Source: Monarcha castaneiventris obscurior
Taxonomy: Eukaryota > Chordata > Aves > Passeriformes > Monarchidae
NCBI GenBank assembly: GCA_026261815.1
Contig: JAMPIT010000437.1
Coordinates: 868,001-932,000 of the forward strand
DNA: 64,000 bases
Direction: 5' to 3'
Shown: piece after piece, positions 97 through 63,490 of the stretch
How the letters are laid out: every line of letters begins with the position of its first letter
Numbering within the stretch: the stretch's first letter is position 1
Made by a program: the position numbers and the translations under genes
Notes under the pieces: model-generated
Database searches by the model: none
What the model saw: only the letters and a program-made list of their open reading frames with translations
Told to the model about the DNA's origin: nothing

Positions 97-21028
<20,932 letters not shown>

Positions 21029-22903: not shown

Positions 22904-22910
22904 CACCTGG

Positions 22911-23335
22911 CACCGGCCCATGGAGGCACCGGACTGGCACCGGCACCGGCACTGGCACCGGCCCACGGGGGCACCGGACTGGCACCGGCACTGGCACCGG
23001 CCCATGGAGGCACCGGCACTGGCCCCGGCCCAGGGGGGCACCGGCACCGGCCCACGGGGGCACCGGACTGGCACCGGCACCGGCACTGGCACCGGCCCAC
23101 GGGGGCACCGGACTGGCACCGGCACCGGCACTGGCACCGGCCCACGGGGGCACCGGACTGGCACCGGCACCGGCACTGGCACCGGCCCATGGAGGCACCG
23201 GACTGGCACCGGCACCGGCACTGGCACCGGCCCACGGGGGCACCGGACTGGCACCGGCACCGGCCCATGGGGGCACCGGCACCGGCACCGGCACTGGCTC
23301 ACGGGGGCACCGGCACTGGCCCCGGCCCCGGCCCC
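22911..23335. repeat. GC minisatellite with a 45-bp higher-order unit
   Basis: It is built from hexamers CACCGG and CACTGG, arranged in units of about 45 bp beginning caccggcccacgggggcacc. Five or more units are visible, with shorter variants between them. Unit lengths are multiples of three, so several frames on both strands stay open, giving ORFs up to about 350 codons. Composition (GTGTG/RGHR or PVPVP repeats) and the lack of any domain argue against coding. Confidence 0.9.
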
Positions 23336-23550
23336 GCGTTGTTCCCGTGGCACTCGGACCCCGGGAACCCTGCCTGCATAACGGGACACCGGCACGGACC
23401 GGCCCGGGTGCGCGGGGCTGAGAGCCGGGAGCAGCTCAGCCTCTTCCCCGGGCTGGTGCCGCCGCTGGGGCAGGAGAGGCGCGGAGGGCGGGCAGAGCGC
23501 CCTGGAGCCACCGTCCCACCGTGGGGCTGGGAATGTGCCACAATAAACCC

Positions 23551-24080
23551 TGGTTCACGGGCAGGTGTTATCCCTGTCCCACCCCAGACTGGTTCATAGG
23601 CAGGTGTTATCCCTGTCCCACCCCAGACTGGTTCATAGGCAAGTGTTATCCCTGTCCCACACCAGACTGGTTCACAGGCAGGTGTTATCCCTGTCCCACA
23701 CCAGACTGGTTCATAAGCAGGTGTTATCCCTGTCCCTCACCGAACTGGTTCACAGGCAGGTGTTATCCCTGTCCCACACCGAACTGGTTCATAGGCAGGT
23801 GTTATCCCTGTCCCACACCGAACTGGTTCATAGGCAGGTGTTACCCCTGTCCCACACCAGACTGGTTCACAGGCAGGTGTTATCCCTGTCCCACACCAGA
23901 CTGGTTCACAGGCAGGTGTTATCCCTGTCCCACACCAGACTGGTTCACAGGCAGGTGTTATCCCTGTCCCACACCGAACTGGTTCATAGGCAGGTGTTAC
24001 CCCTGTCCCACACCAGACTGGTTCATAGGCAGGTGTTACCCCTGTCCCACACCAGACTGGTTCACAGGCAGGTGTTATCC
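23551..24080. repeat. 39-bp tandem array, 13 full units plus a partial unit
   Basis: The 39-bp unit starts tggttcataggcaggtg and runs through ttatccctgtcccacac to agac. Thirteen complete units span 23551-24057, and a fourteenth is cut at about 24080. Units differ at a few sites (ttcata/ttcaca, cagact/cgaact). Because 39 is divisible by 3, frames stay open and would encode a 13-residue repeat WFxGRCYPCPTPx. It is most likely a minisatellite; no start context or conserved gene supports translation. Confidence 0.93.
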
Positions 24081-26370
24081 CCATGGCTCCACTCTGCACC
24101 ATGGAGAGGAATGCAGTCATGCTCTGTGTCCACCAACACCCTTAAATGGGATTACAAGCATTACAAGAATATAAATATGAGCCTGGATAAGTTTCCAGGA
24201 TGCCACATGCAGCATCCCAGCACAGGGGGACAGAGACTCCTCCCTGCTCAATTTACTCCAAGAGCTGTTCAGGGGAAACAGGGAAAGCCAGGCAGAGGCC
24301 ATGGGGCAAGCCTGGCATTATACTGTAACAATATCATAGTGGCCTGACACGGTGACAAAAACTGAAGCTATAACCTCACTTTAATAGTGTAGCACCAGCA
24401 TTTTGCAAGAAATCTGAATGTGCATGGTTTTTTTCCCCTCAATCACCAGCATTTCTTTGAGAGAAAAGAACCCAGCTCTGAAACACTCGTTTTATTTTTC
24501 AGGAATGAAAAACCCCAAACCTTTTGCTGCCCCTTTTACTCCTGCATGTAAGGGGAGCTTCACGCTGTACAGCTGCACCCTGAGCAGACACCCAAGTGGG
24601 TTGTCTGAAGGTGGTTACAAAAGGTCACTCTGCAGAGTGCTCAGGGATCTTCCAACAGCGTGGGGGATGCATATTTTCTTGGAATAATCCTCTCTTTATT
24701 ACCCCATAAAACTGGCAGAAACTTCTCCTTTGTATACAGCAAGTCAGCTCGGTGACATTGAAGCCAGCCTAGAAAGTTATTTTGGTTTCCTCTGCCAAAT
24801 CAGATCTCAAAAATCAGGTAAAGCTAAACCAGATTGTAGTGTTTACATTTTAGCTCTGTAACATTTTAATTGGAAACATTCGATTTCCAGCATTGTAAGA
24901 CACCCAAAGAGCTGTTTGGGCCAGCAGGATCTCTCAGAACTATTTCCCTCTGTGCCTGGTAAATGAACTGAGTTGTAAAAACACAGACATGGTCACTGTG
25001 GAGTCACTGCTGGATCAGTCTGGGTGGGCTCAGACACCGAGGAGCTGGTCCTCAAGGGGAGACCCTGAGGTGCTGCTCAGGGTGGGCTCCGAGCTCAGCC
25101 AGCCCCTCGCAGGGACTCCCTGAGGTGCTGCTCAGGGACACAGCAGCCACGCAGGGATCGGCAATCTCCAGGACTTAGCCCCTCTCTTTCAAGACATCAG
25201 ATGAGACTGGATCCTCCCCCTGCCCTCAGTTCATTCACAGGTGAAGAAACCTGGTGTTAAGACAATTCCCAAACGGAATGTCACACTTCAGTGCTCCTGC
25301 TGACTGCTGGAGTGGCCCAGGAATGTTCACGGCTGCACTATGGTCAAATCTATTTGTGTTTCCATTCCTGAAGATCAACAGACAGTGCCCACAGATGGAG
25401 ACAGGATGTCTGACTGATGTGCCTTCCTCACATTCTCAAAATTATACAAATTGTGTGAGCAGCAGTCAAAAAAATAGCTTCTTTCTCTATTTAACCCCAT
25501 CAGGGATCATTAAGATTTTTCTCACATTCCCTTAAACACATCTTGCTGGGATCTTCCAGACATGCCTTTCACAATCAATTCTCTGCTTTAACTGGGGATT
25601 GAATTACTAATGATTTCATCTTCTGAGAACGGCAATTCTTCAGTATAAAAATCTTCATGCTCAAAAGCCCAAAGCTGTCTGTGAAAATGCAGCGATCTGA
25701 TGCTCAGCTGTGATTTAAATGGCAAAGTCACTGGAAGTTCACAAGGCTTGTTATTGACTGGGGGCATATAATTATCTCCAATTATAATTTAAAAAGGCAA
25801 CCCCCCCAGTACAAGCCACTCAGGGCCCTCAGTGAGCCTGAGACTGCAGACTCTCAGCTGTATGACCTTCCCAGTCCCGAATAAGCCCAAGGTTTTCTTT
25901 TCGAAGGACATACATGTTTCTGTTTCATAACAATAGATTCCAAGAGATTTTCCCCATAATAAGGCTAAAAATACTTGCCCAGGCCCCATGAGAAATTAAC
26001 CCTTGCCTGTTTCTAGCAAGCTTGTAGTTCCTTAGCTGGTAGCAGCTATTATAAAAGTTTGCTGTTCAGCAAGCAGGCAGGTATCTGACCTACCACAAGA
26101 TTCCAAAAACCACCCCCTCGATTGCAAATAACCTGAGAACAGGGAAATTGGTTTGGTGATTCTTCCTAATGCTGTGGATAAAAAGTGTGCATGGCCTTTA
26201 CACTGTTGATATTAAAAATAACTCATTTTATACTTCTTTTAGTCATTAGAAATCTCAAATAAACTTCCGTGTTCTTCTAATCAACATCACTGTAGGTTCT
26301 TCCGACCTGTAAGACACAGAAAATTCAGTTTAAAAGGGCAGCAGTGCCAAGCAGGGCAGGGGAGGCTGGT
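24081..26370. other. Intergenic sequence with no supported gene
   Basis: Mixed-composition DNA between the 39-bp array and STRIT1 exon 2. A 20-bp segment ccctgaggtgctgctcaggg occurs twice, near 25066 and 25118. On the - strand AATAAA occurs at 24695-24700 and 24491-24496, possible ends for a STRIT1 transcript with a third exon. No conserved ORF was recognised. Confidence 0.5.
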
Positions 26371-26482
26371 GTGTGACACTGCCCTCACTTACCACAGGGC
26401 TGCTGTGTGACCCTGCCCTCACTTACCTCAGGGCTGCTGTGTGACCCTGCCCTCACCTCAGGGCTGCTGTGTGACCCTGCCA
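26371..26482 (-). repeat. 34-bp tandem repeat that multiplies splice donors after the STRIT1 stop
   Basis: Units start at 26371, 26405, 26439 (30 bp, lacking four bases) and 26469 (partial). Read on the - strand, the strand of STRIT1, the first two units contain GGTAAGTGAGG and the third GAGGTGAGGG. These are strong 5' splice sites with exon ends at 26393, 26427 and 26457. They lie 102, 68 and 38 bases after the STRIT1 stop. Use of any of them is unproven. Confidence 0.85.
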
Positions 26483-26494
26483 TCCCTTCCTGCA

Positions 26495-26589
26495 TCAGGA
26501 GAAGACAATGTAAACCATGAGGGCACAGCCCACGATCCAGCCGAGCGCCAGCAGCACCGGGACCAGCAGGCGGGACAGCGGGGCCTGGG
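26495..26589 (-). CDS. STRIT1: STRIT1 coding exon 2 (transmembrane helix and stop)
   Basis: The acceptor is tgtgtgccag. It encodes [13 protein letters not shown], then [17 protein letters not shown], and stops with TGA at 26497-26495. The hydrophobic stretch with a central Gly-Trp and an N-terminal Pro is characteristic of DWORF and unlike phospholamban or sarcolipin. Confidence 0.92.
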
Positions 26590-28704
26590 CTGGCACACAA
26601 AACAGGGTCAGTTACACTGACAGGGAACTTGCTAAATGAATCCCACCAAACCCAGGATGGTCACAGAGCACAGGGACACCCGGGAGCTCAGGCCACACTG
26701 CCTGGGATGGCTGTTTCCAGCACGGAGTCGCCGTGGCCTGGGGTCTTCCAGTGCGAATCCAAAGCCCAGAGGGGATAGGGAGGAGACGAGCACAGGGCTG
26801 CCCTTCAGCTCCATGGGGGAACATCCTCACTGGACTTAGTGACAGCAGAGCCCGGATCCGAGCCCTGACACCTTCAGCACCTGCCAGGAGCCTCACTGGG
26901 CTGGTGGCAGTAAAGCACAAACAGTGATTATTTAACACTGCAGCCAGTCCAGGTCCGTGTGCCTGGGGCTGCAGGGAGGGGAGGCTGGATGGGCTCCCAT
27001 GTCCCAAAGGGAGGCTGGCAGTGGCTGCACACCAGGGACTCACAGCTCCTCTCTCTGCCCACCACAGCCCTGTCCTGTCCTGCCACCACCGTGGTATGGG
27101 GTAGCTCAGGCTGAGGTAATCACCCACTGCAAAGGTGTTCCCTCCTTTCCAGAAGGAAAATACCACAAGTTTGCAATGCGGATGTCCCAGGGTGGCTGCT
27201 CAGCAGGCCTGGAACAGGCTCAGTGCAGCCCAGTGCAGGCCATGGTTCTCTGTGGAGCACACGGGAAGCAGGACTGGCTTTACATAAATAAATCTCCATG
27301 CAACATCAGAGTTTTAAAGACCCTTCTATCAGTTTCCAGCAAACAGCACACTCTCATCAGAAAGCAGAATAACAACCTTTGAGATCCTATTACTTACCAA
27401 TATATTACAGCCTCTTACAGCACATCTTTACACAGTTAATAGAATTACAGGTTTTTGAAGGGATTCATAAATTATGTAAAACTATTCACAACACCTTGCA
27501 CAGTTTAGATCAAGCAGGCAGACTCGGAGGGATGCTTAATAATTCAAGGATTGCCACATTGTTCTTCTAAAGCTCTGCATAGCAAACCTGTCTCACCATG
27601 ACACTGCACAGTGTGTCTGCCAGAGGGAGAGAGAGAAGATCTGCATGTGCTGCCATGAAAATATTAAACACATAAACAACCACACAGCAAACAAATCCTG
27701 CCCTGAAACTGGATGTCCTCTTGCCCCAGGGGAGTCCCTCATGCATTTCATTTAGAGACTGCTACTGCTTTGACACTGTGCACAGTGAAGCTGCTGGGGA
27801 TCATTTCCCTGTACTTGCCATTTCTCCAAAGGCCTGACCACAAACCCAGGGCTGGATTCTGCTGGGCTGCAGGGCGGGGTTTGTCAGAGCTCTGCTGATG
27901 CTGTTGAGGCTACTGACTATAGGGGATTGTAATGGGAGCTCCAGTATAAACCAGTATCAGAGTAATTTCTGGGGCTATCCATGAAAACTCAGATAAATGA
28001 ACAGTGTTCAGTATCCTGTTGCACTTTAGCGAAACTCACTCTCCCTAGATAGCAAACTCAATGGTGAAAAAACCCCAGGAGATAAATCCTTAAAAACTTT
28101 GAACATAGCTATGAAGACATATTAAAAAGTTCCCTTTACAAGTGTTACCTGAGTAACTGTGCACACAGCACACATCACAGCTACAGTTGTAAATTAAGGT
28201 GAAATAAATAAAAAATGACAACAGATATAAAGTGCATTTTTATGAACTGCCTTTTCTCCTTGGAGAGAGTGAAGCGTGCTTACAATGGAAAGGTCATTAT
28301 TAAAATTTCATTTTGCTCTGACACTTGAGCTTTGCGGGGTTAAAATCTAAATTATTCCGTGTTCACTTGGCACTACACTTGGAGCTCAGCTACACACAAT
28401 ATAACCAAAATGCTGTCAAACATAACTCATTTCACACACTGTTCCATTGTGTTAGCTAACTTGGAATGACAACTACAGAAAATAAACAAAACTAGTAGGA
28501 GTCAAAAATACAGGAGGAACTCAAGCTGTTAATAGAATTAGCTTTTAAAGTGATTACACTTTCATACTGAAAAGTAAAATATATATGGTATATCAGACAA
28601 GAATACAAGTAGCTGAGTATGTTCACCCTGCATTGCTCAGATCGATTAATTTCAGTATATTATCACATTCACATTTAATTGTGCCTCTTACCTGGTTCTG
28701 CCAT
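26495..28704 (-). CDS. STRIT1: STRIT1 (DWORF) SERCA-activating microprotein, two coding exons
   Basis: DWORF is a single-pass micropeptide of the muscle sarcoplasmic reticulum. It binds SERCA and raises calcium-pump activity, counteracting phospholamban. Exon 1 (28704-28692) reads ATG GCA GAA CCA G and is followed by gtaagag. Exon 2 (26589-26495) follows tgtgccag and completes an Ala codon, then encodes [25 protein letters not shown] and YIVFS before TGA. The product is exactly 35 residues, as in human. From memory human DWORF starts MAEK and contains HLLVPILL, GWIVGC and VVFS, so the membrane helix (residues 12-34), the kink proline Pro15 and GWIVGC are kept. Residue 4 is Pro instead of Lys. 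The ATG context has G at -3 and G at +4. Human STRIT1 also lies between MME and PLCH1. The intron is 2102 bp. Confidence 0.9.
26590..28691 (-). other. STRIT1: STRIT1 intron 1
   Basis: 2102 bp bounded by gtaagag and tgccag on the - strand. Apart from ordinary mixed sequence I see no repeat family or further coding segment in it. Confidence 0.75.
28692..28704 (-). CDS. STRIT1: STRIT1 coding exon 1 (13 nt: MAEP + 1 base)
   Basis: On the - strand the sequence is ATGGCAGAACCAG followed by the donor gtaagag. In mammals the first coding exon likewise carries only the first four codons (MAEK). The phase-1 end fits the CC at the start of exon 2 to make Ala. Upstream bases give a favourable start context. 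Confidence 0.85.
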
Positions 28705-28744: not shown

Positions 28745-28810
28745 TGCAGCTGCTCTGGGAGCCCTGGGATGCTTTAAATAGAGCAATATTTGGAATGTGC
28801 TGCAGCTGCC
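28745..28810 (-). promoter_or_regulatory. STRIT1: Putative muscle-type promoter of STRIT1
   Basis: Going toward the gene on the - strand there is an E-box CAGCTG (28803-28808), an MCAT/TEAD site CATTCC (28797-28792), CTATTTAAAG (28781-28772, a TATA-like box one base from the MEF2 consensus) and a second E-box CAGCTG (28752-28747). The TATA-like box is 68 bases from the ATG, so the start site would be near 28745-28750 with a short 5' UTR. These families (MyoD-type bHLH, TEAD, MEF2) drive striated-muscle genes. Function is inferred. Confidence 0.5.
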
Positions 28811-41477: not shown

Positions 41478-41931
41478 CTGCTGGCCATTCCCCTTGCTCC
41501 TGCTGGCCATTCCCCTTGCTCTGCTGGCCATTCCCCTTGCTCCTGCTGGCCATTCCCTTCGCTCCTGCTGGCCATTCCCCTCGCTCCTGCTGGCCATTCC
41601 CCTCGCTCCTGCTGGCCATTCCCCTTGCTCTGCTGGCCATTCCCCTCGCTCTGCTGGCCATTCCCCTCGCTCCTGCTGGCCATTCCCCTTGCTCTGCTGG
41701 CCATTCTCCTTGCTCTGCTGGCCATTCCCCTCGCTCCTGCTGGCCATTCTCCTGCTGGCCATTCTCCTGCTGGCCATTCCCCTTGCTCCTGCTGGCCATT
41801 CTCCTGCTGGCCATTCCGCTGCTGGCCATTCCCCTCACTCCTGCTGGCCATTCTCCTGCTGGGCATTCCGCTGCTGGCCATTCCCCTCACTCCTGCTGGC
41901 CATTCTCCTGCTGGGCATTCCCCTTGCTCCA
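41478..41931. repeat. 21/22-bp minisatellite with 15-bp variants, about 23 units
   Basis: The unit is ctggccattccccttgctc plus tg, in 22-bp and 21-bp forms. A shorter 15-bp variant, ctggccattctcctg, dominates toward the right end. About 23 ctgg(c/g)cattc cores are countable. The mixture of 21- and 22-bp units shifts frame repeatedly, and overlapping ORFs of about 130-230 codons on both strands are by-products of the array, not genes. Confidence 0.92.
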
Positions 41932-51008: not shown

Positions 51009-53083
51009 CTACAGCCGGAGCAGAAAGTAGATCTCGGGCTGGTCCTGGGCGCCGGGCGGCAGCGGCAGGCCGGGGCCGGCGCCGTGCCCGCAGAGCCCGT
51101 CCCCACAGCCGCGCTGCAGGGCGGAGCAGGCACCCTCGGGCACACCGCGGTGCTCCCCGGGGCAGCCGTGCAGGTAGCGGCCGATGTAGGAGCCCGTGGA
51201 GTGCCTGTTGGCGGCGTGCGGGGGCCCCGCGGCCTTGCTCCGCAGCACCACCCCGGGAACGCCGCTGCCGTCGCACGGCCGGGGCTTGCCCGCCGCCTCC
51301 TGCCGCTCCCGGGCGCGGCTGGCGATGTTCCGCACCCGGCTCTGGCTGCGGGACGACAGCTTCCTCACCAGGGCCCGGGGGCAGTCCTCGTCCGTCTGCC
51401 TGGAGCACAGGGGATCGCGGCTGTCCTCCTGCTCCAGGGACAGCAGCTTCCGCAGCTGCTCCGTCAGCGCGTCCGTCGAGTGCGGCCTCACGCCCTGCGC
51501 GGCGGCCGCCTTCCCGTCCCTCAGGCCCGAGGAGATGAAGCTCCTGCTGATGTACTGATACTTACTCTCAAAGTTGCAGGAAATGTCCTCCGAGGTCAGG
51601 TCTCCCAGGCTCTTGGACTTGCAGGGGCTGCTGTGCTGGATGGCCGGGTGCGGGAGCAGCGGGCAGGCTGGGCCCAGCCGGGGGGCACGCACCGCATCCC
51701 TGCGCTTCTCTGAGTGCTGCTGGCACAAAAACCCAGCGTGCTCACACCTGGGGAAAGGGAGCTGGCTCCCTGCCGTCCTCAAGTCGTTGGAGCAGTGCCA
51801 GGCAGCGGCACAGAGCCCAGCAGTGGTGCTGCTCCCAGAGGTCCTGTCCCCAGCGTGCCCAGGGTCCTGCTTCTGCCGCAGTCTCAGGGGAGAAGCCAGC
51901 TGGCTCATGTCCTCCCGTCTGTACTCACAGGCAGTGACCAGCAGGTCCTGCGAGTCCCCGTCCACCTCCACCAGGCTGCTGCTGTCCGAGTGCTCCCCAC
52001 TGACAGGGGGCCCCAGCGCCTCCTCAAAGATGAGGCTGCTGGAACCAAAAGAGCTGCCACGCTCAGGGGCTTCCCAGCTTGGTCCAGATTTTGTACCACA
52101 GTTCCTTTTGGGATTTGCATTTAGCATAGAGAGGGATGAAGAACAAGGAGATCCAGGCAAATTATTTTCTAGACTATTAAATCTTTTCTTGCACACTAAT
52201 TCCCTGTGGCTGTTACATTCGGAAGCTGGAGGTGCCTCATGGATAACTGTGTACATGGAATACTCTGCATCCTGCAGGTTGGAGAGCATGGCTGTATCCG
52301 GAGTGGAGAATAAAGGGGATTTGTTGGATTTTGTGGGAGTGAAGTTGTGCCTACAGGGACTGCTCAGGTCTGCAGCAAACACGTGTGGGAGTGCAGCCCC
52401 CAGCCTGGGGGTCTGGCTGCTGCTGCCATGGGGGCTGGAGACAGGGGGAAGGAGAGTTTGGTCCTCTGTGCCATCGAGCTGCCCAATGAGAGCGGACACA
52501 GCACTGTCCAGCTCGCTCTCAGTCGACAGAGAGACTTCATCAATGAGGTGAGAAATGTCACTGTCCTGCAGGGCTACCGTGGAGTGACAGTCAGGGCCCT
52601 CAGAGCACACAGCAGAAGAAATATCAGTCAGGGAAAGAGGTGCTGCCGTGCTTTTCTTCATGTTGTATTTGTGATCCTCCACCTCTGCTTTCTGAGAAAG
52701 AGAAGTCCCCATGAGAGTGATTTTCCCTTCCTTAGGCCCTTTTGTGTCATCTTCCTTTTTACTGTCTGCACTGCTTTTGTGGTGTGATTTTTCTGTGGGA
52801 AGTTCAGAGTCAGGGTCCTGCATTAGTGGGACAGTTCCATCAGAAAGATTATTCTCCTGATAGTCCGTGAGGTGATTTGCTTGAGCTACACCATTTGCAA
52901 AAACCAAATGTTCAGGTTGCTCCTGTGGAGGTGGTACTAAAGAGTCAGCTGTAGAATCCCTCTGGTCATTCTCCTTCTTGAACTGAGATGCTAAATTTGA
53001 AGCATTTGCCTTTGGCTCCGAACATGGAAGAACCAATTCTTTCAAGCTCGTTTCCTTCCCATTTGTATTGTTGTCACTGTTGG
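51009..53083 (-). CDS. PLCH1: PLCH1 last coding exon (long C-terminal tail)
   Basis: This 2075-bp exon begins after tttaatttag and codes for 690 residues before TAG (51011-51009). Most of it is low-complexity Ser/Pro/acidic sequence, probably disordered. Conserved islands are [105 protein letters not shown] and the C-terminus PEIYFLLRL. The hydrophobic last residues could form a PDZ ligand. The 3' 500 bp are very GC-rich, so antisense ORFs appear there. Confidence 0.95.
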
Positions 53084-56000
53084 CTAAATTAAATGAGAAA
53101 CATATTAGTGGCATACAAGACTCTGCTCTGTCTATCAACAGCTATTTTGTCCTTAGACAGACAAATGGAGAACGCAAAATTAGGTACAGTTGTGACAGAA
53201 CTTAATCATGGGGTTGTGCAGGTTTAGTACAAATTATCTGACTGATATGAAAAAATGGAAAAATACAACTGCAGGCACTTCATTGAAACTTCCTTGGAAT
53301 GTCTATTACATCAAGCAGGTGATGTAATATTTGTTGTAAGTAATGTTAATGAGGTACCACATCATAGCTTGCACGTGGCATTACCTTCAGCTGTGTTCCT
53401 AGTCACATTTGTACTATAAAGAAGCGTGGCAATAAAGACAGAACAAAACAGCTCTGTTAAAACACACAACACTTGGAAACAAGATGCATGCTTCAAGCTG
53501 AGTCAAAAGCATCGAGTAGATGGACTCCAGACTGGTTTATACATGTGGTTACTGTAAAGTGTTACAATACACGGATTTCATTTGGATCTTCTACCAGCAA
53601 GCAGCATTCACAAGGGCAAGGGCTTGAATTCCTTGAAAAACACATACTGGATGTTTTCTCCACCAAATCCTGTCTTTCTATGCCAGATCTGAGCTCTGTG
53701 ACTCACTCCCTTAGAGGTTTAATTAAGCAGGGACTATAGAAGTAAACTTGGCATAACAGATACTGGTTTTAATGCTTGCTAGAAATCAGGTACTCTTGGA
53801 AGAAGCAAGGCGAGCCCTGACCCTTCACTGGCAGTGACTGAACCCCTCGGTGGAGTAGGAACTGCTGCTAATGAACATGGCATTAAATGCCCGTCTCCAA
53901 AATCTGGACAGTTCCCAGGCTTTCCAGTGCTCCAAGAGAAGGGTGGAAGAGATGCACATTTCTTTGATTTGCAGATTTATTTTTTCTATCAGGAAAGAAT
54001 GGATGAGAAAGCAGACAGCACCCTGTCCCCTGGCATAACTGCAGAGCAGCAGAGATGTTCAGCCAGAGCATTTTAGCAAGAGAGATCTCTTTGGGACAGC
54101 GTCTCCATAGGGATATGAACCAAGCCTTACAGAGACTCTAAGGGACAGGATCCACCCCTCTCACAGATAGAAGGGGCAGGATTCAACCCTGTGACAGCTT
54201 TTTAGATCACCTCCCAGGGCCTGTGCTTTTGGCAATAGGTTCCTTTGCTGGAAGTGAGTATCTGTGACCTCCAAAAAGTGTGTAAGTTTCCTTGTCTGTA
54301 GCACCCTTGGGAAGAAACACCCAGGAAACTGTTACAGCTGCTGTGATGAATGGCTGAGCTGTATCATCTTCACATCTAATTCATGTGCCTGGTTTGCAGA
54401 GCCGGCACCTTTCCAGGTGTCACCTATGTAAGGAGCTGATCAAATCTCAAAGAGATGTGATTTAGCCCACTGACTCTTCCTTGAGTTGAATAAAACTACT
54501 TGCACAGAGGCTGCAGGACCAATCCTTTTGAACACACTATTTCAACTTGCTACACCAAAAGTAACTTTGGAAGCCTCTTACCAGATGTGTTTTCCTCTCC
54601 GTTGGCCTCCTGGGCAGTGTCCTCTGCTGGGCAGGGCAGCTCTACCATGAGGAATCTGTCCACGGGCATGGACGCAGGCCGCGCCTGCAAACTGCGGTTC
54701 GGCCGCCGGACCACGCCTTCCTTGTCCTTCAGGTCTGTCGGCTCGGAGGCGCTGTCCTTCATCTCAGCAGCCTCCAGGAAGCCCATCTTGCTCTTCTTCC
54801 TGCCCTTGGCCGGGGCGCTGGCCGTGCGCCGCAGGATGCGCTCGCCGATGGAGCGCTTGCGCACGTGGTGCCCGCCGGCCTCGGCCGCGCCCGCCTTGGG
54901 CGCCTTGGAGAACAGCCCTCGGAGCCCCATCAGCTGCTTGCTCTGCAAGGACAACACACCACGGCCTGGGCTGAGCTCACCCTCACCCACGGCGAGCACG
55001 AGGCAAAGAGCTGCTCTCGCAGTGCGTATGAGTGATGATGACAAAATTCAAAACGCAGCAAAGCAAAAATTCACACCAAGCCACTCACATCTACTCTGAC
55101 CAAGGAGCTCCCAGCACAGGTCTCCATGGATTCATGCATGCCTGGCTTTCTCCTCATTAGGATGGCAGCCTGCCACAGTTACAAGAGGGCTTTGCTCAGT
55201 CTCCTAATGGGAGCTGACAAGGCTCTAGGAAGTGCACGCAGTGACAGGCTGCACATTAACATGGAGGTTTATATGCATGGGTTTCATCAAAGCAATATTC
55301 AGATGTTTCAGAGCCTGCATGGAGAGTGGTGCAAGTTTGGCAGTTGCAGATCATGCGACTGGGAACCACTGGAAAGTCTGTGCCCAGCAAGTGCAAAGTG
55401 CATGCTCATGAGCTCTACCTTTGTGGCTCCTAGAAAGTGCATTATTGTGTAACTGGGATTGAGGATTAAAGGGCTCCACTGAAAGGCAAAAAGAAAGGCA
55501 AATCCATTTGGCTCATGTTTTCAAGACTGCCACACAAGCAAATAAAGTAACACTGCATCAGCTGTAAACAGAACCCACTCTACAGCAAAGCATTTAAAAC
55601 TATTTATTAGTTTAATATAAGTGTCCCCCAGAAACTGACCAAATCTCACTCATAGATGCAAACCCAGCTAGAAACTACAATGCAGCTCATCATTCATTCA
55701 GAGCAGCATCAGGTGAGCAGACCCAGTGACAGAGATCAAATCCCAGTGGGTGTCCCCTCCTGCTCCTCTTGCCTCCCCTCTGGCATGGTTTTCTTGAGCA
55801 TATTTGCTCTTACAGGAGCAGCAGCCAAACAGGCCCCTGCAAACCCTCCCCAAGGGATGTGATTTCACAGATCAGGGAGGAGAAAGGAAGTGGAGCTGGG
55901 AGAGGATCTGGACAAGAGCAAACCTCAGCCCTGGGCCCTTCTCTGCTGTTCTCTCCCTGCTCCCCTGAGCTTGCTGTGGGTGCTGCACAGCTTTGTGTTC

Positions 56001-59000
56001 CTGTTTGTCATGATATTCTCTGTATCCTCTCAGAAGGCACAAGGAGTGAGGGCTGAGTGTCCTCTGCAACCTCAAACCTCACAAAGGTCAGGTTTTTGTG
56101 GGTTTTTGTCTTCATTTCTTAAATCACTGCAAAAGTGCTATTTTACTTTAGCATTCTGCTGAACATGGCCTTAATTTCTTTGTGCTGCTTATCTCCAAAT
56201 GGAAACAGCTAAGGAGGGCAGCTGAAAACACAGAAAAAGCACTGTGCTTTCACTTTCACTTTAAAAACATTCTAAAATTAGCAAACTTGCAGAAAAGCAA
56301 AATCCATGTACTAAAACCTAAAATTGAATTACGTTAATTTAAATTAATTAAATTAGTTGCTAAAAATAGCTTGTCAAATACCATGTTCTGGTGCAGTTAC
56401 AGTTCTCAAGATCTACTTCCAAAATAAGACCAGTTCAGCACACTAAAGAAATGTACTTCCTGTACCTAGACAAGATAATTGTTAGGTGCTAACAGTGAGG
56501 ACATCTGTAAGTATGTGTACACCAAGAGTGGAGTCATGGTGTGGTGTAACCCTCACACACACTCTGAGCCTCCTGGGCACTCCAACACAAATCCTGAGAG
56601 GTTCTGGGGTACATTCAAATCCATTTTTATCAGAAGGAAGATGTAAATTTCCATCTGTACGTACCTTCCCATAGGTCTCATTAATGATTATATGGACAAA
56701 TATGGAAGCTTCTGTCAGCCCCTCTAAATACACGTGGCGATAGCCTGGGGAAACAGAAATAGATATATTTCCACACAAACCACCACCAAGAACCAGCAGT
56801 TTGCATTTTATGCCCACCTAGCAATGACTGTCTATAAATGAAGTGATGTATACACAGGAAGCCACCTCGTGCCTTTAGTAAACTTCTCTGGTGTTCTCAG
56901 AGGTTTTCCAAGTCCCCATTATAAATTGCACCCAAGTTATAAAAAACACACCAGCAGTAATTTGCAAAAGCACAGACAACCAAACTCCTTTGAGGAATGG
57001 TGCATAAAGCACCCCAAGAGAACAGAAGTGTTGTCCAAGCTTCACATGAAGTCACAAAGATAAACATTTATAAAAGCTATCATCTCGTGCTGGTAACATC
57101 CTCCTTGGGTTTGAAGGTGGATTTTCAAGCCCAGGAGAACAGGGGGACTCACCAGGCACGAGGCTGCTGAAGGCCACAGTTCTCTGCCCCACAAAGTCTC
57201 TCCCAATGGGATCGTGGTCCCAAACCAGGAACCGCACCAGGGCAATTTCGGGCATGTGGATGGTGAAGGTGAGGGTCTCCTCCCAAACAGGATTGAACCC
57301 TGCCAGGCAAACAGGACACACTTTGGCAAATGAGTCCATGGCGAGTGCTTGCCTCACTTCCCAAGAGACACAGGACACAAGCAGCAGCAATGAGAATTCC
57401 ATCATGTCAGTCATTAAATGTGACATATCTGCCCCAAGGACTGCTTTAAAAACAAAATGGGTCTGCCTGGGAGCCAGCAGGGATACCCAGGCAAGCTGCT
57501 GCTCGGAGGCACTGAGATACAGATACAGATACAGATATAGATAGATTTGGAACTGCTGCATGAAGGAGATTTAAGAACAATTTGGTTAAAAGATCATGTG
57601 GGGAACAACTCCTGCTCTTCACCTCTAACTTGTTTCATCTCCCCACACCAGAAATTCTGTCTGGGTAGCAGAAATAATTTGTTAAAATACAATCATTTGA
57701 TTTCATCAGAGAAGATGCTTTGCAATTTAGAAAGCAATAACAGACACTGAATCATTTATAATTATTTCATATTTTACTCAAAGAAATCACTTAGATTATC
57801 TTACCATTGTCGTCCACCACCCTGGTCTGGTCTTTACAGCAGTCAACAGGTAACCCAATAATCTCCACCTCAACAAAGGGATCTATTATCTGTTTTTCAA
57901 AAACACAGTATTTTAAAAACAAGCCATTGATACAAATGAAGGTGAATTAAAAAAAAATTATGGAGAGAGTTGATTTAAATTCATGTCAGAATTCAAACCC
58001 CTTTGATTGACACAAATTTTCAGGCAGCACTATCATGGGAATTGGTTCCATGAAGTCCATGTCGATGTATGGTTTGTATCAAGAGCTATGGACAGCTGTG
58101 TCTAATTCTCATAAAAGTCACCTTTTAAAATACAAAACAAATCAGCCTGTGTCCTACTTTAACATCACAGGTAGGATACAGGCTGGGGGAAATGTAGTAT
58201 TTAGTGACCAAAAGCTTGACAATTTCTGCAATGTACTGATATATTTAAATGAGGAGAAGGTCTGAGTTACACACTGCTGTGTCACTCCAGGAGCTCCCGT
58301 GGAAGCCTCTGCTGTGACCAGAGCATCTCACCTCTCCTCTGTCCCCCAGCATTGAGTCAGGAGGCTTGGGGAGCTGCTGCCCACTGATGATCTTCAGAAT
58401 GAGCTGCTTCTTAGGACTGGCAGGAAGTGGATCAGCAGAGTAGGGGTTGAATGTGCCTAAAAGATGGCAAGAATGAGAGTGTAAGGAAAAAGATACACAC
58501 AATAAATATCACCCCCAAGACAAACACAGACAGACAAATTCAGTCAGAAATAAGAAACTGTGAGTATGGAGCAGCTGTTTGGTAATTTTAAAATTCTCTT
58601 TCTTACAACCTTTTCTGAGCTGAGCAGCCCTTGTTTATGTGATTCCAAGACAGAGCTGGAACAAGCCCTGGGTGGCCTTGCTCCTGGGCCACTGCACAGC
58701 TTTTTCTACTTTCCTGCAGCTGGTCATCCTAGGACCCCTTTTTCTTCTTTCCAACACACGTTAATAAGACAAAGACCACAAAATATACATATATATATAT
58801 GATCACAATAAGAGATTGCGCACTAGCACAAGTCTAAGAGCTACAAGTGCATGGAAATATGAAAGATTCTGTATTTGTTTGCAATTTCCTTCCTTGTGCT
58901 TTCACTGTGAAGGACACTTTGTGAAAGGCCTGACACAGTGATAACTACACTGGAACCTTACCTTTGCACATCTGCTGAGGTTTGAGGACATAACCACAGT

Positions 59001-62000
59001 TGCCATTTACCCTGAATTTTGCTTCATTTAACTGCATCACACGTCCCTCAGACTGGTAGTTTAGGGCCACTGAAAGAGAGAAGCCAGGTGTCATTAATGA
59101 AGACAGTGTTACTTAGCACATACACACCAAAAGGGAAGGAAGCCTTTCATGCAACTCCTACCTAACTGGCAGCCCACATTCCAGTAAGGAACAGGGTTGA
59201 AGTTGCTGGAGTCGATCCGATAGGCTGAGGGATAGACCCTGGTCAGCTGCCTCTGGTTGTAAAGCATGAACTGCTCAGCCTTCTGCTGCACGGCCTGGTG
59301 GGCTCTGGTCTCACTGAAGGACAGCACGTTCCCTGTGGAGCCTGTGCCATGGTACAACCAACAGACAGGTGACAAACGATCCCAGGGCATGGGGCCTGGG
59401 CCCACACCTCATTACCTGGGGACTAATTGAGGGCAACGTGAGATTTTGTCCAGTGTTACAAGGATAGATTGTCTTGTCTTGCACAAATAATGTACCTTGG
59501 CTAACTGAAGGGCACCAGCTCCCACTTCCAGGAGGGTCTGTTGTTCTCCCCTCAAGTTTGCAGACTTGAAAGCAAAGCCAAGCAAGAGCTCCAGCTAAAG
59601 AGCCCGAGCCCAAGAACTTCTGCTGGGGCCTTTCCTCCTGCAGACCCCTAGTGATGGCTCTGGGCAGAGGAGTCACTGCTGGGGAGGGAGTGCCCCACTG
59701 GGCCCTGGCTTTGCCCTCGTGCCACAATAACAGCGGCACTCTGCCCCCTGCTCTCTCACGAGTGCCAAGGGCTGTGCCAGCCCGGTGCCAGCCCCATACC
59801 ATCATCCACGATGTCCTGGGCTGCCACGGAGTTGGTGTACACCACCAGGTCAGACAGGTCCCGGCACAGCTTCACTGTCTTCCTGCGGCGGGCCAGCCTG
59901 CAGGGTTAGACCAGACAAAAACAGGCACTTGCAGTATTGAAGGTGTATTTAATCCACCTTTCTGTTGTTTTCAATCCCCCTTTCTGTTCTTTCAAACAAG
60001 GAGGTAAACAATTGTGAGCAGGGAACTACATGTGGCAAACCTGCTCTGAGAGGGCTCTGGGATGACTGCTCCCCTCTACCTTCACAGCCCATCCACACAA
60101 ACAAAATGTTTCATTTAAAACATAATGAAATAGCTGCACCATGGCTGTTCTAGACAAAACCAAGAAGCATTTCAGTGACAGCAGGCGCATTCTCAGTGGC
60201 ACTTTTTTGATTGCTTTTTCTTTCCATTCTCAGATGCAATAAAGTTGCCTGGGCTGTGATGCACCTTCTTTAACCTGCACAGTTTGCTCTGAGCACTGTT
60301 TGCAGCGGGTGAAATGGGGCCTGGCATCTTTCCATGAGCAGTTCCTGTCACACTTCTCAGCAGTTCCAGGGTAATTGCTGCTTGCAGCCTGTGACAGGCG
60401 ACACAGCCGAACCCCCGGGCTCACAGCAAACCCACCCCGACAGCTGTGTCACGTGTGAGACACATCATATGTGACATGCACGGCACACGTGGCACATGTG
60501 ACCTGCTCTGGCACAGCCTCACACTCTGATGGCAGCGAGCAGCCCCTGGCTTTACCTCAGGGGTTCCCAGCTCACCTGTGGGGCTGCCCCGGCTCCTTCC
60601 CAGGAGGGTGCTGCTGGCTCTCCTCGTCGTCCGAGCCACTGTGGCCTTTGGCTGCTGCCTTTGCAGCTTTCTGTGGGGAAAAAGCCAAGCAGGGCCGGGT
60701 CAGTCGGGGCTCCAGACACCCCCGTTCCTGTGGCTGCTGCTGGGCAGGAGGGCGAGCTGGGTTTGCTGCTCCAGGGACAAAACTGTCCCCTGGAGCTGGG
60801 CCAGCAGAGTTTCCCTGCTGTGGAGAAGGAAGGGCAGCACAGAGCACCACTCCACCCCACAGCAGGGACCCAGGCTGCAGCATGGGCAGCTCTGTGTCCT
60901 GGCCAGCCCAGCCAGGCCTCACAGCTCCAGGGCACTGCTCCTGCTGGAATCCCAGTGGTTGTGTCATATTTAACAAACAGCAACACACAGCAGGGTCTAA
61001 ATACACAGAGCACTGCTTCTGCCCACCTCTGCTCCCCCCCAGTTTGGAAAATTAAACATATTCTTTAGTGAAGGTGTGAACAGAGTCTGGGCAAAATGCT
61101 CAAACATCATCTTTCTGCTCTCTTTTGAGCCACATACAAATATTCATGTGATTCTAAATTACTACACTATAAAGAAAACAGCTATGATAAAAAAGATTAA
61201 AACCTCAAAATCCCCTTTTTTCATAAGCACCTATGATTTAATAGTTTCTAATTTCAGCGTTACATCTTTTGTAACACTAAACAGCTTCAAGTGAGAGTTA
61301 GTTAATTCCCTTCTCATCAAGAGGTAATTAATGTAAGTAAGAGCTCCTTATCCTTTTGCACACAGCTCACTGAGCACAGATCTTTCCTCCTCTTGCCATA
61401 CACAATATTGAACATAATTTAGTTTGCTGCGTTTAGTGCTGACATGAAGTTGACTATATTGGAAATCATTTGCATGGTTCACTTTGGAGTCTGAAGGTCT
61501 GCACTGAGGATGTTCCATGCAGTTAAATTTCAGGAATTGCCAGGTTTAGTGTCTTTGTCCCTCTCCTGGTAGTTTTTAAAGAGGTTATTCATTTGGCACA
61601 AGAGATGGCTGAAAATGTCACATATCAATACTGTTGGGTGGATCATCCTATATCTGCAAAAATATCAATAACAACCAGTCTTCCCAGGCATCCCTTCAGC
61701 TGGAAAGGCATCAGGGAGCAGTTACAGGATGTCCCTGTTGCCTCAGTCTACGATACAGTCACTATTTTTTAAAAAAATCTATATACACCCTTATTTTTTT
61801 CAGCAGAGAAGAAACAAACAGGCTTTCCAACCTGCTGCATCCATTAGGATAACTAGCTGAAGTAATTAAATTATTGACAGACTTTGCAGCCCTCAGCATA
61901 ACCAGCAGATTGCAGTGGCTGACGTTTGCCTGTGACATCTCACTCCACAGCATTTGTCTGGCCAGCAGCAAGCACAGGGTGCCATGGGAAGTGCCCACTC

Positions 62001-63490
62001 TGAGGGACCACAGGCACTTGGAGCTCCCACCACACCCTGAGTGAGAAATGTGCACTGAGCTGAAGGTGCTGAAGGAAACATGAGCACTTTAAGCTGATGT
62101 AAGCTTGGAATTGAAGTGTAAATACAGTCTGATACAGTCTGCTTAGGCAATTTTTGATGGCTCCTAGCTGGCTTCAGGGCAGATGGACTGATGGCTGATT
62201 AAATCTTTGAAATGTCTCTTAATCACAAAAAACTGCTCAGATTATCAATCCCAGAGCTTGCTGCAGCCCTCACCATGGACAGCACAGACCAAGAACAGCA
62301 GGCTCTGGCAGGCTGGGGCAGAGGGACTGCTGGTGGCACAGGGACTGGGCTGCAGGGCTGCCCCTCTGCTCAGTCACCCACTCTACACTGCTCACTGACT
62401 CCAGGGGGAAGGAGGCTGGCAGCTGGATCAGCTCAGGCCGAGGCCGTAAATCCAAGGCTCAAGGCACTGTGGGAGTGTGGGAACAGGGCAGGCAGATGAC
62501 AGGAGCACATTTGTCAGGATATGGGAACGGAAGGAAACGTGTGCACTGTCCCTCGTGGGGGCTGCTCCGTGCCCAGCTGTGAAATGAGAGCTCTCAGCTC
62601 CCGCCTGGCTCGGTGCAGACACCACTGAAGAGCAGCAGAGCAGGCAGCCCTCCCCAGCAGCTGCACAAACATCACCAGGACATGAAAACCAGGAAGAGAT
62701 CAGGGAAGAACACATCTGCACAGAGCAGGAGCCCAGAGCCAGCACTTGGCCACAGCAGCCCCTGGGAGCAGGGACAGTCCCAGCACGGCACTGCCCATGG
62801 TGGGACACAGCAAAACTGGGCTCTGACTGAACCAGACACCATCAGCTGTGTGGGAAGCAAGATATGCCAAGACATTTGTCAATGTTGCTCTTCTGCTGCT
62901 GCAAGTTTGATCAGAAAATCAGCAATTCCACAGCACGAGTAAAGATGATATTTTAGTCATGTGAGATGGTTTTGTTCATCCTTAAAGGTTCTCAATCTTC
63001 TGAACAGAATTAAGACACCAAGTGTGATCACACAGGTTCCCTCCTCGCTGCCCCCAGGCCCACCAAGCTTATCTGGAGCAGTAAAACACTGCCAGGGTCT
63101 CTGGAATGCTGCCAGTCCCAGAACAGCAACCTGAGCTCTCATTTATTCCACTCACCTTGTGTTTACCAAAGTTGCCCATTAATGATCGACCGTGAGACTT
63201 TTTTCCTCCTTCTTTTGTGTCCAGGTTCTGTGCAGAGAAAGTGCAATAAAAAGTGTAACTAGATACCTTCAGAAATGTCTTTAAAGCGTCTGCTACAGTC
63301 TCTAAAAAACAGCATTTCAACCTCATACAAGTTCTTGTATGTCACCCTTGTTCACTATCAGGAAAGTACAGTTATTGCAAATGAGACAAAGTGAGTTAAA
63401 GTCTGATCTGTGCACACAAATTAAAATCCAAAATCTCATTACAAGACTTTTCTAATTTCTTTGTGTACTTACTTGTTTAGAATCCTCTAA
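51009..63490 (-). CDS. PLCH1: PLCH1 (phospholipase C eta-1), 3' half, 13 exons
   Basis: PLC-eta1 hydrolyses PIP2 to IP3 and diacylglycerol. It is highly calcium-sensitive and mainly neuronal. The window holds, in transcription order, the end of the X-Y linker, the Y half of the TIM barrel ([14 protein letters not shown], then [14 protein letters not shown]), the C2 domain ([36 protein letters not shown]) and a tail of about 800 residues ending IYFLLRL. Exons: 63490-63473, 63227-63156, 60670-60576, 59897-59800, 59341-59162, 59069-58962, 58456-58332, 57889-57805, 57299-57153, 56744-56665, 55478-55419 (cassette), 54942-54582, 53083-51009. All phases join. The total is 1167 codons plus stop. The tail blocks [16 protein letters not shown] and [19 protein letters not shown] and the cassette exon fit PLCH1 rather than PLCH2. 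The PH, EF-hand and X-domain exons lie right of the window. Confidence 0.95.
54582..54942 (-). CDS. PLCH1: PLCH1 exon (proximal tail, [20 protein letters not shown])
   Basis: 361 bp after cttgcag. It encodes [48 protein letters not shown] and [14 protein letters not shown]. The basic [21 protein letters not shown] block is shared with human PLCH1. It ends in a split codon (GCC, Ala) at gtaaga. Confidence 0.94.
55419..55478 (-). CDS. PLCH1: PLCH1 60-nt cassette exon (20 residues)
   Basis: The acceptor is tgcctttcag and the donor gtagag. It is phase 0/0 and encodes [19 protein letters not shown] plus K. From memory the long human PLCH1 isoform carries almost the same 20-residue insert right after NEIYGK, so this is very likely a conserved alternatively used exon. 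Skipping it keeps the frame. Confidence 0.85.
56665..56744 (-). CDS. PLCH1: PLCH1 exon (end of C2)
   Basis: 80 bp after gtttccccag. It encodes [33 protein letters not shown] is the conserved last strand of PLC C2 domains. It ends in phase 0 at gtacgt, so both the following cassette exon and the tail exon can be joined in frame. Confidence 0.95.
57153..57299 (-). CDS. PLCH1: PLCH1 exon (C2 domain)
   Basis: 147 bp. It encodes [48 protein letters not shown]. [14 protein letters not shown] is the second calcium-binding loop of the C2 domain. The donor is gtgagt. Confidence 0.96.
57515..57546 (+). repeat. (ATACAG/ATAG)n short tandem repeat
   Basis: About four ATACAG units followed by ATAG units in a PLCH1 intron. 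It produces a YRYRYR run in one frame and is not coding. Confidence 0.85.
57805..57889 (-). CDS. PLCH1: PLCH1 exon (C2 domain)
   Basis: 85 bp. It encodes [36 protein letters not shown] and VVDDNGFNP carry C2 calcium-site aspartates. It ends in a split Gly codon at gtaaga. Confidence 0.95.
58332..58456 (-). CDS. PLCH1: PLCH1 exon (Y-C2 junction)
   Basis: 125 bp. It encodes [51 protein letters not shown] is the first strand of the C2 domain. It ends in phase 0 at gtgaga. Confidence 0.95.
58780..58800. repeat. (AT)n microsatellite in a PLCH1 intron
   Basis: A short acatatatatatatg-type tract between the Y- and C2-domain exons. Confidence 0.75.
58962..59069 (-). CDS. PLCH1: PLCH1 exon (end of the Y domain)
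   Basis: 108 bp. It encodes [36 protein letters not shown]. The GCGYVLKP-type ending (here NCGYVLKP) closes the TIM barrel in all eukaryotic PLCs. It ends in a split Gly codon. Confidence 0.95.
59162..59341 (-). CDS. PLCH1: PLCH1 exon (Y domain core)
   Basis: 180 bp. It encodes [56 protein letters not shown]. The YPSxYRxDSSNxNP motif supplies the arginine that contacts the PIP2 head group in PLC enzymes. Confidence 0.95.
59800..59897 (-). CDS. PLCH1: PLCH1 exon (start of the Y catalytic half)
   Basis: 98 bp. It encodes [19 protein letters not shown] and [13 protein letters not shown]. This is the conserved beginning of the PLC Y box of eta isoforms. It ends in a split Gly codon at gtatgg. 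Confidence 0.94.
60576..60670 (-). CDS. PLCH1: PLCH1 exon (X-Y linker, acidic/Ser segment)
   Basis: 95 bp after ttccccacag. It encodes [19 protein letters not shown] followed by [11 protein letters not shown] and a split Arg codon. The Lys/Ala start and SDDEES run are typical of the poorly conserved autoinhibitory X-Y linker. The donor is gtgagc. Confidence 0.85.
60671..63155 (-). other. PLCH1: Large PLCH1 intron in the X-Y linker region
   Basis: About 2.5 kb between two phase-0 linker exons. I found no further segment with a good acceptor, donor and linker-like peptide, but the linker is poorly conserved, so an extra alternative exon cannot be excluded. Confidence 0.6.
63156..63227 (-). CDS. 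PLCH1: PLCH1 exon (X-Y linker, [12 protein letters not shown])
   Basis: 72 bp, phase 0/0, between ctctgcacag and gtgagt. It encodes [18 protein letters not shown] and NFGKHK. The basic GRSL-GNFGKHK block belongs to the linker before the Y domain. Confidence 0.85.
63473..63490 (-). CDS. PLCH1: PLCH1 putative 18-nt microexon (X-Y linker)
   Basis: On the - strand, ttttctttacag is followed by TTA GAG GAT TCT AAA CAA and gtaagtac. It would add LEDSKQ in phase 0/0 to the acidic X-Y linker. Strong splice sites and phase agreement support it. I cannot confirm the peptide from memory of the family. Confidence 0.5.

What the first reader, a model, noticed from the sequence alone, without database searches (positions are those of the whole stretch)
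26495..28704. A 35-residue STRIT1/DWORF microprotein split by a 2.1-kb intron
Two fragments 2.1 kb apart on the - strand (ATGGCAGAACCAG|gtaag and ccag|CC CAG GCC...) join in phase into exactly 35 codons. The product has a membrane helix containing LLVP and GWIVGC. The 13-nt first exon makes it invisible to ORF callers and many annotation pipelines. Length, exon split, Pro15 and location between MME and PLCH1 all match mammalian DWORF. Differences (Pro4 for Lys4, GCALMV for GCIIMI) are of interest for SERCA regulation in a high-heart-rate lineage.
Basis: partly seen in the sequence, partly recalled or inferred. Interest (0 to 1): 0.88.

Follow-up and report, generated by a model that had tools for sequence, protein, structure and literature searches.

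The report
Songbird version of heart microprotein DWORF
In a songbird genome, two short stretches of DNA 2.1 kb apart are predicted to splice into a 35-residue protein that matches DWORF, a known microprotein that would likely speed up the calcium pump of heart muscle; it is an expected relative, not a new kind of gene.

Summary
The product matches Pfam DWORF (PF22030) end to end, 57.4 bits against a cut-off of 27, and human DWORF in PDB 7mpa (E 5e-11; 22 of 35 identical). Of 973 possible 35-codon spliced ORFs in the window it alone scores 123 against human DWORF; the next scores 9, the best of 30 shuffled windows 23. It lies between neprilysin (MME) and PLCH1 in a passerine bird. Leu12, Pro15, Gly21, Gly25 and Tyr31, tied to SERCA binding or activation in the literature, are kept. 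'DWORF orthologue' is right but ordinary: the family is reported from lamprey to mammals. The divergence was understated (13 differences). New details: no alternative acceptor within 60 nt gives the mammalian 34-residue form, and a 34-bp tandem repeat just after the stop repeats a splice-donor sequence three times. No transcript and no other bird's DWORF could be examined.

The parts
28692..28704 (-). exon 1 coding part of DWORF/STRIT1: ATG GCA GAA CCA G (codons 1-4 and first base of codon 5)
   Evidence: start context gggggaATGG has G at -3 and +4
26590..28691 (-). predicted intron 1, 2102 nt, phase 1, GT-AG
   Evidence: donor in the top 0.11% of GTs on the strand; acceptor ordinary
26607..26611 (-). 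CTGAC branch-point-like motif, A at 26608
   Evidence: consensus match only
26495..26589 (-). exon 2 coding part: rest of codon 5 to codon 35 and TGA stop; carries the membrane helix with LLVP and GWIVGC
28773..28780 (-). TATA-like TATTTAAA 76 nt before the ATG; no ATG in between
   Evidence: (0.07 expected in 250 nt from its density in the window); function inferred
28747..28752 (-). CAGCTG E-box
   Evidence: two CAGCTG sites in 250 nt, 0.62 hits expected counting both strands, so weak
28803..28808 (-). CAGCTG E-box
   Evidence: weak, as above
28792..28797 (-). CATTCC, MCAT-like core
   Evidence: 0.32 expected in 250 nt, so weak
26364..26488 (-). 34-bp tandem repeat, 3.8 copies, starting 7 nt after the stop codon; three copies contain a splice-donor sequence (first intron bases 26456, 26426, 26392)
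   Evidence: donor scores in the top 0.6%, 0.03% and 0.35% of GTs
26300..26325 (-). possible acceptor of a second intron in the 3' untranslated region (TTTTCTGTGTCTTACAG|GTCGG, first exon base 26306)
   Evidence: 69% pyrimidine, reached by 34% of compared sites; speculative
26227..26232 (-). TATAAA, possible weak poly(A) signal; first AATAAA lies only at 24700, first ATTAAA at 24870
   Evidence: speculative
14573..21028 (+). neighbour: last coding exons of MME (neprilysin), ending CRVW-stop at 21014-21028
   Evidence: ORF 14573-14917 matches neprilysin 1dmt, E 1.4e-22; later exons by motif search and recall
51009..63230 (-). neighbour: exons of PLCH1
   Evidence: bird PLCH1 proteins by tblastn; C2 domain

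Best explanation
The two fragments are predicted to be the coding parts of exons 1 and 2 of STRIT1, the gene for the microprotein DWORF, in a passerine bird, whose 35-residue product would likely sit in the sarcoplasmic reticulum membrane of heart and slow muscle and activate the SERCA calcium pump. Shown here: the intact split reading frame, the full-length match to the DWORF family, and the place between MME and PLCH1. Inferred from the mammalian protein: an N-terminal cytosolic segment (about residues 1-11) leads into one membrane helix bent at Pro15; the helix would bind the groove of SERCA that phospholamban uses, with Leu12, Pro15, the smooth Gly21-x-x-x-Gly25 face and Tyr31 kept, so it should displace the inhibitor and raise pump turnover rather than inhibit. 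Untested: splicing, translation, tissue and effect on bird SERCA.
For: Exact 35-codon join. Pfam PF22030 DWORF over residues 1-35, 57.4 bits, cut-off 27. Human DWORF, PDB 7mpa, E 5e-11; 22 of 35 identical, 28 of 35 similar. 1 of 973 candidate spliced ORFs; 123 against 9 for the next and at most 23 in 30 shuffles. Strong donor and G at -3 and +4 of the ATG. MME and PLCH1 on either side. [quoted passage not shown] here the junction codon is likewise Ala5, G|CC. Profile probes: each of 7 single changes at L12, P15 (two), G21, W22, G25 or Y31 lowered the Pfam score, from 57.4 to 49.9-53.6. Membrane helix: best 19-residue Kyte-Doolittle mean 2.57, human 2.92; exon-2 peptide alone modelled as one helix over its residues 4-29, pLDDT 92. 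Pro15: P15A abolished the calcium-uptake gain in mammals (PMC8203291, passages).
Against: No RNA or protein evidence. No other bird DWORF compared, so no dN/dS. The acceptor is unremarkable. The N-terminal 11 residues differ from human at 6 places, among them Lys4 to Pro; each of 11 single changes towards human raised the Pfam score, and human scores 97.5 against 57.4, so this is a divergent member by that profile. The single-sequence model shows no break at Pro15, though such a model cannot judge a kink. No canonical AATAAA within 1.7 kb of the stop.
Confidence: 0.93

Rival explanations
1. It is a recently decaying STRIT1 relic: the frame is still open but the gene is no longer expressed or useful in this lineage.
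For: No expression evidence; divergence from human concentrated in the first 11 residues (6 of 11); a tandem repeat has grown just after the stop and no canonical poly(A) signal is near.
Against: Start, donor, acceptor, frame and stop are all intact, and all functionally named residues are kept. The membrane-helix changes are conservative hydrophobic ones, apart from L19A and I27A.
Confidence: 0.05
2. The locus makes the peptide, but the bird form acts differently on SERCA, as a weak activator or a displacer only, because the N-terminal segment has lost Lys4 and carries Pro4 and Pro8.
For: Pro4 and Pro8 lie in the segment modelled as an amphipathic helix in human DWORF (PMC8203291, passages); in the bird model the helix starts only after Pro8.
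Against: Pro15, Leu12 and the GxxxG face, the features tied to activation in the literature, are kept; hydrophobic moment of residues 1-13 is close to human (0.424 and 0.466); mouse DWORF also carries a proline in this segment (MAEKESTSPHLI, PMC12233064) and is an activator.
Confidence: 0.1
3. Chance: two unrelated fragments that happen to join into 35 codons resembling DWORF.
For: 973 exact-35-codon joins exist in this window under loose splice rules.
Against: None of the other 972 scores above 9 against 123; 30 shuffles reach at most 23; correct neighbours.
Confidence: 0.001

Closest known systems
DWORF / STRIT1 of mammals (Pfam PF22030; human structure PDB 7mpa)
   Same: 35 residues, end-to-end match, junction at codon 5, one membrane helix, L12, P15, GWIVGC with G21 and G25, Y31, FS C-terminus, between MME and PLCH1 (human location recalled).
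   Different: 13 of 35 residues differ from human: K4P, G6Q, S7A, T8P, F9L, H11R, I16V, L19A, I20L, I27A, I28L, I30V, V32I. No nearby acceptor gives the 34-residue form. Tandem repeat with repeated donor sequence after the stop.
Phospholamban and sarcolipin (inhibitory SERCA regulins)
   Same: Small single-pass membrane peptides of the same pump; Leu12 aligns with PLN Leu31 and SLN Leu8 (PMC13368986, section read).
   Different: Position 15 is Pro, not the Asn of PLN (Asn34) and SLN (Asn11) that is central to inhibition; neither was matched in Pfam or PDB.

Membership tests
DWORF (PF22030) | full-length match to the family profile above its curated cut-off | tested here: met
   57.4 bits against 27, residues 1-35 on profile 1-35 of 35
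[quoted passage not shown]
   35 codons, junction codon Ala5; mammalian isoforms from PMC12233064 section 7
DWORF (PF22030) | Pro15 (helix kink, needed for activation) | tested here: met
   role from PMC8203291 passages and PMC13368986 section 2.4
DWORF (PF22030) | Gly21-xxx-Gly25 face and Leu12 in the membrane helix | tested here: met
   LGWIVGC and LLVP at those positions; feature
DWORF (PF22030) | position between MME and PLCH1, same strand as PLCH1 | tested here: met
   MME + strand to 21028, PLCH1 - strand from 51012; the mammalian order is recalled, not looked up
DWORF (PF22030) | 34-residue isoform by alternative exon-2 acceptor | tested here: not met
   of 5 AG acceptors within 60 nt, 1 gives DWORF (35 aa); the +5 site shifts the frame, the three upstream ones stop early. 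An isoform, not an essential feature
DWORF (PF22030) | expression in heart and slow muscle; activation of SERCA | not testable with these tools
   no RNA or assay data

The most novel reading that the evidence does not exclude
Songbirds carry a rewired DWORF gene: a single-isoform 35-residue peptide with a proline-rich, Lys4-less N-terminus, and a 3' region in which a growing tandem repeat offers three donors for a second intron, 38, 68 and 102 nt past the stop, so that donor choice would switch the mRNA between escaping and undergoing nonsense-mediated decay and thereby set SERCA activation in a fast heart.
Probability: 0.05. Interest if true: 0.6.

Novelty: new member of a known kind. Interest (0 to 1): 0.22.

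Why it matters
It adds a divergent, complete bird sequence to a family whose Pfam profile fits human far better (97.5 against 57.4 bits), and shows which residues stay fixed over the bird-mammal split: the Pro15 bend and the GWIVGC face, not the N-terminus. It is also a clean example of a gene that ORF callers miss because its first coding exon has 13 nt. A bird DWORF would let one test whether the activator, with its N-terminus changed, still works on SERCA2a in hearts that beat much faster.

Tried and rejected
Chance joining was tested and rejected. Retained-intron loss or a processed copy was rejected because the intron is present. Rfam gave no RNA family in the window. Whole-genome search with the exon-1 pattern was sent eight times and never answered, so a second copy and the genome itself were not examined. 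Text search for the letters GWIVGC found 0 papers. The paper of Nelson et al. 2016 is not held. In the DWORF/STRIT1 literature searches I saw no bird DWORF sequence or study in the listings, but of the 21 papers that hold both DWORF and chicken I opened 5 (PMC8203291, PMC13368986, PMC9338278, PMC7711957, PMC8818594), as passages, plus two sections of PMC13368986; absence from print is not claimed. Muscle-type promoter motifs were scanned: no MEF2, CArG, GATA or NKX2-5 consensus in the 250 nt before the ATG; E-box and MCAT hits are near chance, the TATA-like site is less so. The single-sequence fold of the exon-2 peptide is a plain helix and decides nothing about the kink.

Full report
What is there. 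On the - strand, 28704-28692 reads ATGGCAGAACCAG and is followed by GTAAGA; 26589-26495 follows ...TGTGTGCCAG and ends in TGA. Joined, they give 108 nt: 35 codons and a stop, [35 protein letters not shown]. The intron has 2102 nt and phase 1.

Is it more than chance. Under loose rules (GTRAG donors, YAG acceptors, first exon of 4-60 nt, introns of 70-12,000 nt, both strands) 70,908 exon pairs yield 973 exact-35-codon frames; this one scores 123 by BLOSUM62 against human DWORF, the next best 9, and 30 Markov-shuffled windows reach at most 23. Human DWORF against the six-frame window finds residues 5-35 with E 2.9e-11, next 0.12. The profile search gives Pfam DWORF PF22030 over its full length, 57.4 bits, cut-off 27, E 1.5e-15; the sequence search gives PDB 7mpa, human DWORF, E 5e-11.

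Signals around it. The donor is among the best 0.11% of GTs on that strand (table recalled). The acceptor is average, with a CTGAC motif whose A is 18 nt from the last intron base. The ATG has G at -3 and at +4, a TATA-like TATTTAAA lies 76 nt upstream and no ATG lies between. Of five AG acceptors within 60 nt of the exon-2 start, only the described one gives DWORF; the site 5 nt downstream shifts the frame and the three upstream run into stops. In mammals an alternative acceptor adds or drops one alanine there, giving 35 or 34 residues (PMC13368986 section 2.2; PMC12233064 section 7). So the junction codon is the same, but this locus shows no route to the shorter form within 60 nt.

Neighbours and lineage. 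An ORF at 14573-14917 (+) matches neprilysin (1dmt, E 1.4e-22), and later + strand exons end in CRVW-stop at 21014-21028 (read as the MME end by recall). PLCH1 exons lie on the - strand from 63230 to 51012. DWORF thus sits tail to tail with MME, about 5.5 kb from its stop, and about 22 kb downstream of the PLCH1 coding end. The PLCH1 last-exon ORF is 81% identical to Vidua macroura and 80% to Cyanoderma ruficeps, and 85% to one unnamed hit; in a tree of 22 rows (21 of 31 hits and the window) it falls in a 7-row clade with Vidua, Cyanoderma and Junco, support 99/96, with Malurus next to that clade. Vidua and Malurus are Passeriformes; that both are oscines, hence 'songbird', is recalled.

Comparison with human. 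22 of 35 residues are identical and 28 similar; 6 of the first 11 differ and 7 of the last 24. Kept are Leu12, Pro15, Gly21, Trp22, Gly25 and Tyr31. Literature ties Pro15 to activation (P15A abolished the gain in calcium uptake; PMC8203291, passages), Leu12 and the Gly21/Gly25 face to SERCA binding (PMC13368986 section 2.4) and Tyr31 to packing in the groove. As a probe of the family profile, each of 11 single changes towards human raised the score (59.1-62.2 bits against 57.4), and each of 7 changes at kept sites lowered it (49.9-53.6); human itself scores 97.5. The profile is therefore human-like and the bird peptide a divergent but clear member. The N-terminus is also poorly conserved between mouse and dog, so its divergence is no sign of a special bird function. 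The exon-2 peptide alone is modelled as one helix from Leu9 to Phe34; without an alignment this says little about the Pro15 bend.

After the stop. A 34-bp repeat, 3.8 copies, occupies 26364-26488, from 7 nt after the TGA. Three copies contain donor sequences (GAG|GTGAGG, GAG|GTAAGT, GTG|GTAAGT) 38, 68 and 102 nt past the stop, in the top 0.6%, 0.03% and 0.35% of GTs. A usable-looking acceptor begins an exon at 26306, and the mouse gene is recalled to have three exons. If this intron is real, only the first donor would leave less than the usual 50-55 nt (recalled rule) between stop and junction. This is a prediction from sequence; the acceptor is no better than a third of comparable sites, and no poly(A) signal better than TATAAA at 26232 lies within 1.6 kb.

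Verdict. The finding is real and correctly named. It is a new, divergent member of a known family in a place where one expects it. What it does in the bird is inferred from mammals. The most novel reading, a rewired avian gene with repeat-borne donors controlling decay, is not excluded and not supported beyond sequence.

Noticed in passing
window 26364-26488 (-): 34-bp tandem repeat directly after the DWORF stop repeats a splice-donor sequence three times (38, 68, 102 nt past the stop), which could offer alternative second-intron donors.
   Followed up: partly
window 14573-21028 (+) beside 26495-28704 (-): The neighbour MME encodes neprilysin, which cleaves SERCA-regulating micropeptides (human neprilysin cuts sarcolipin's luminal end in vitro; PMC9338278, passages). 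Whether it acts on DWORF was not seen there; the adjacency may be coincidence.
   Followed up: partly
window 22907-23336: GC-rich minisatellite with 45-bp (8 copies) and 90-bp units built on GGCACC.
   Followed up: no
window 23550-24081: 39-bp tandem repeat, 13.6 copies, 94% matches; open in several frames by repetition.
   Followed up: no
window 41478-41930: 22-bp and longer tandem repeats (CTGCTGGCCATTCCCCT...), up to 12.8 copies.
   Followed up: no
window 16995-17327 (-): ORF whose translation resembles the end of a CR1-type LINE reverse transcriptase (recalled likeness; Pfam gave no match at 0.1).
   Followed up: partly
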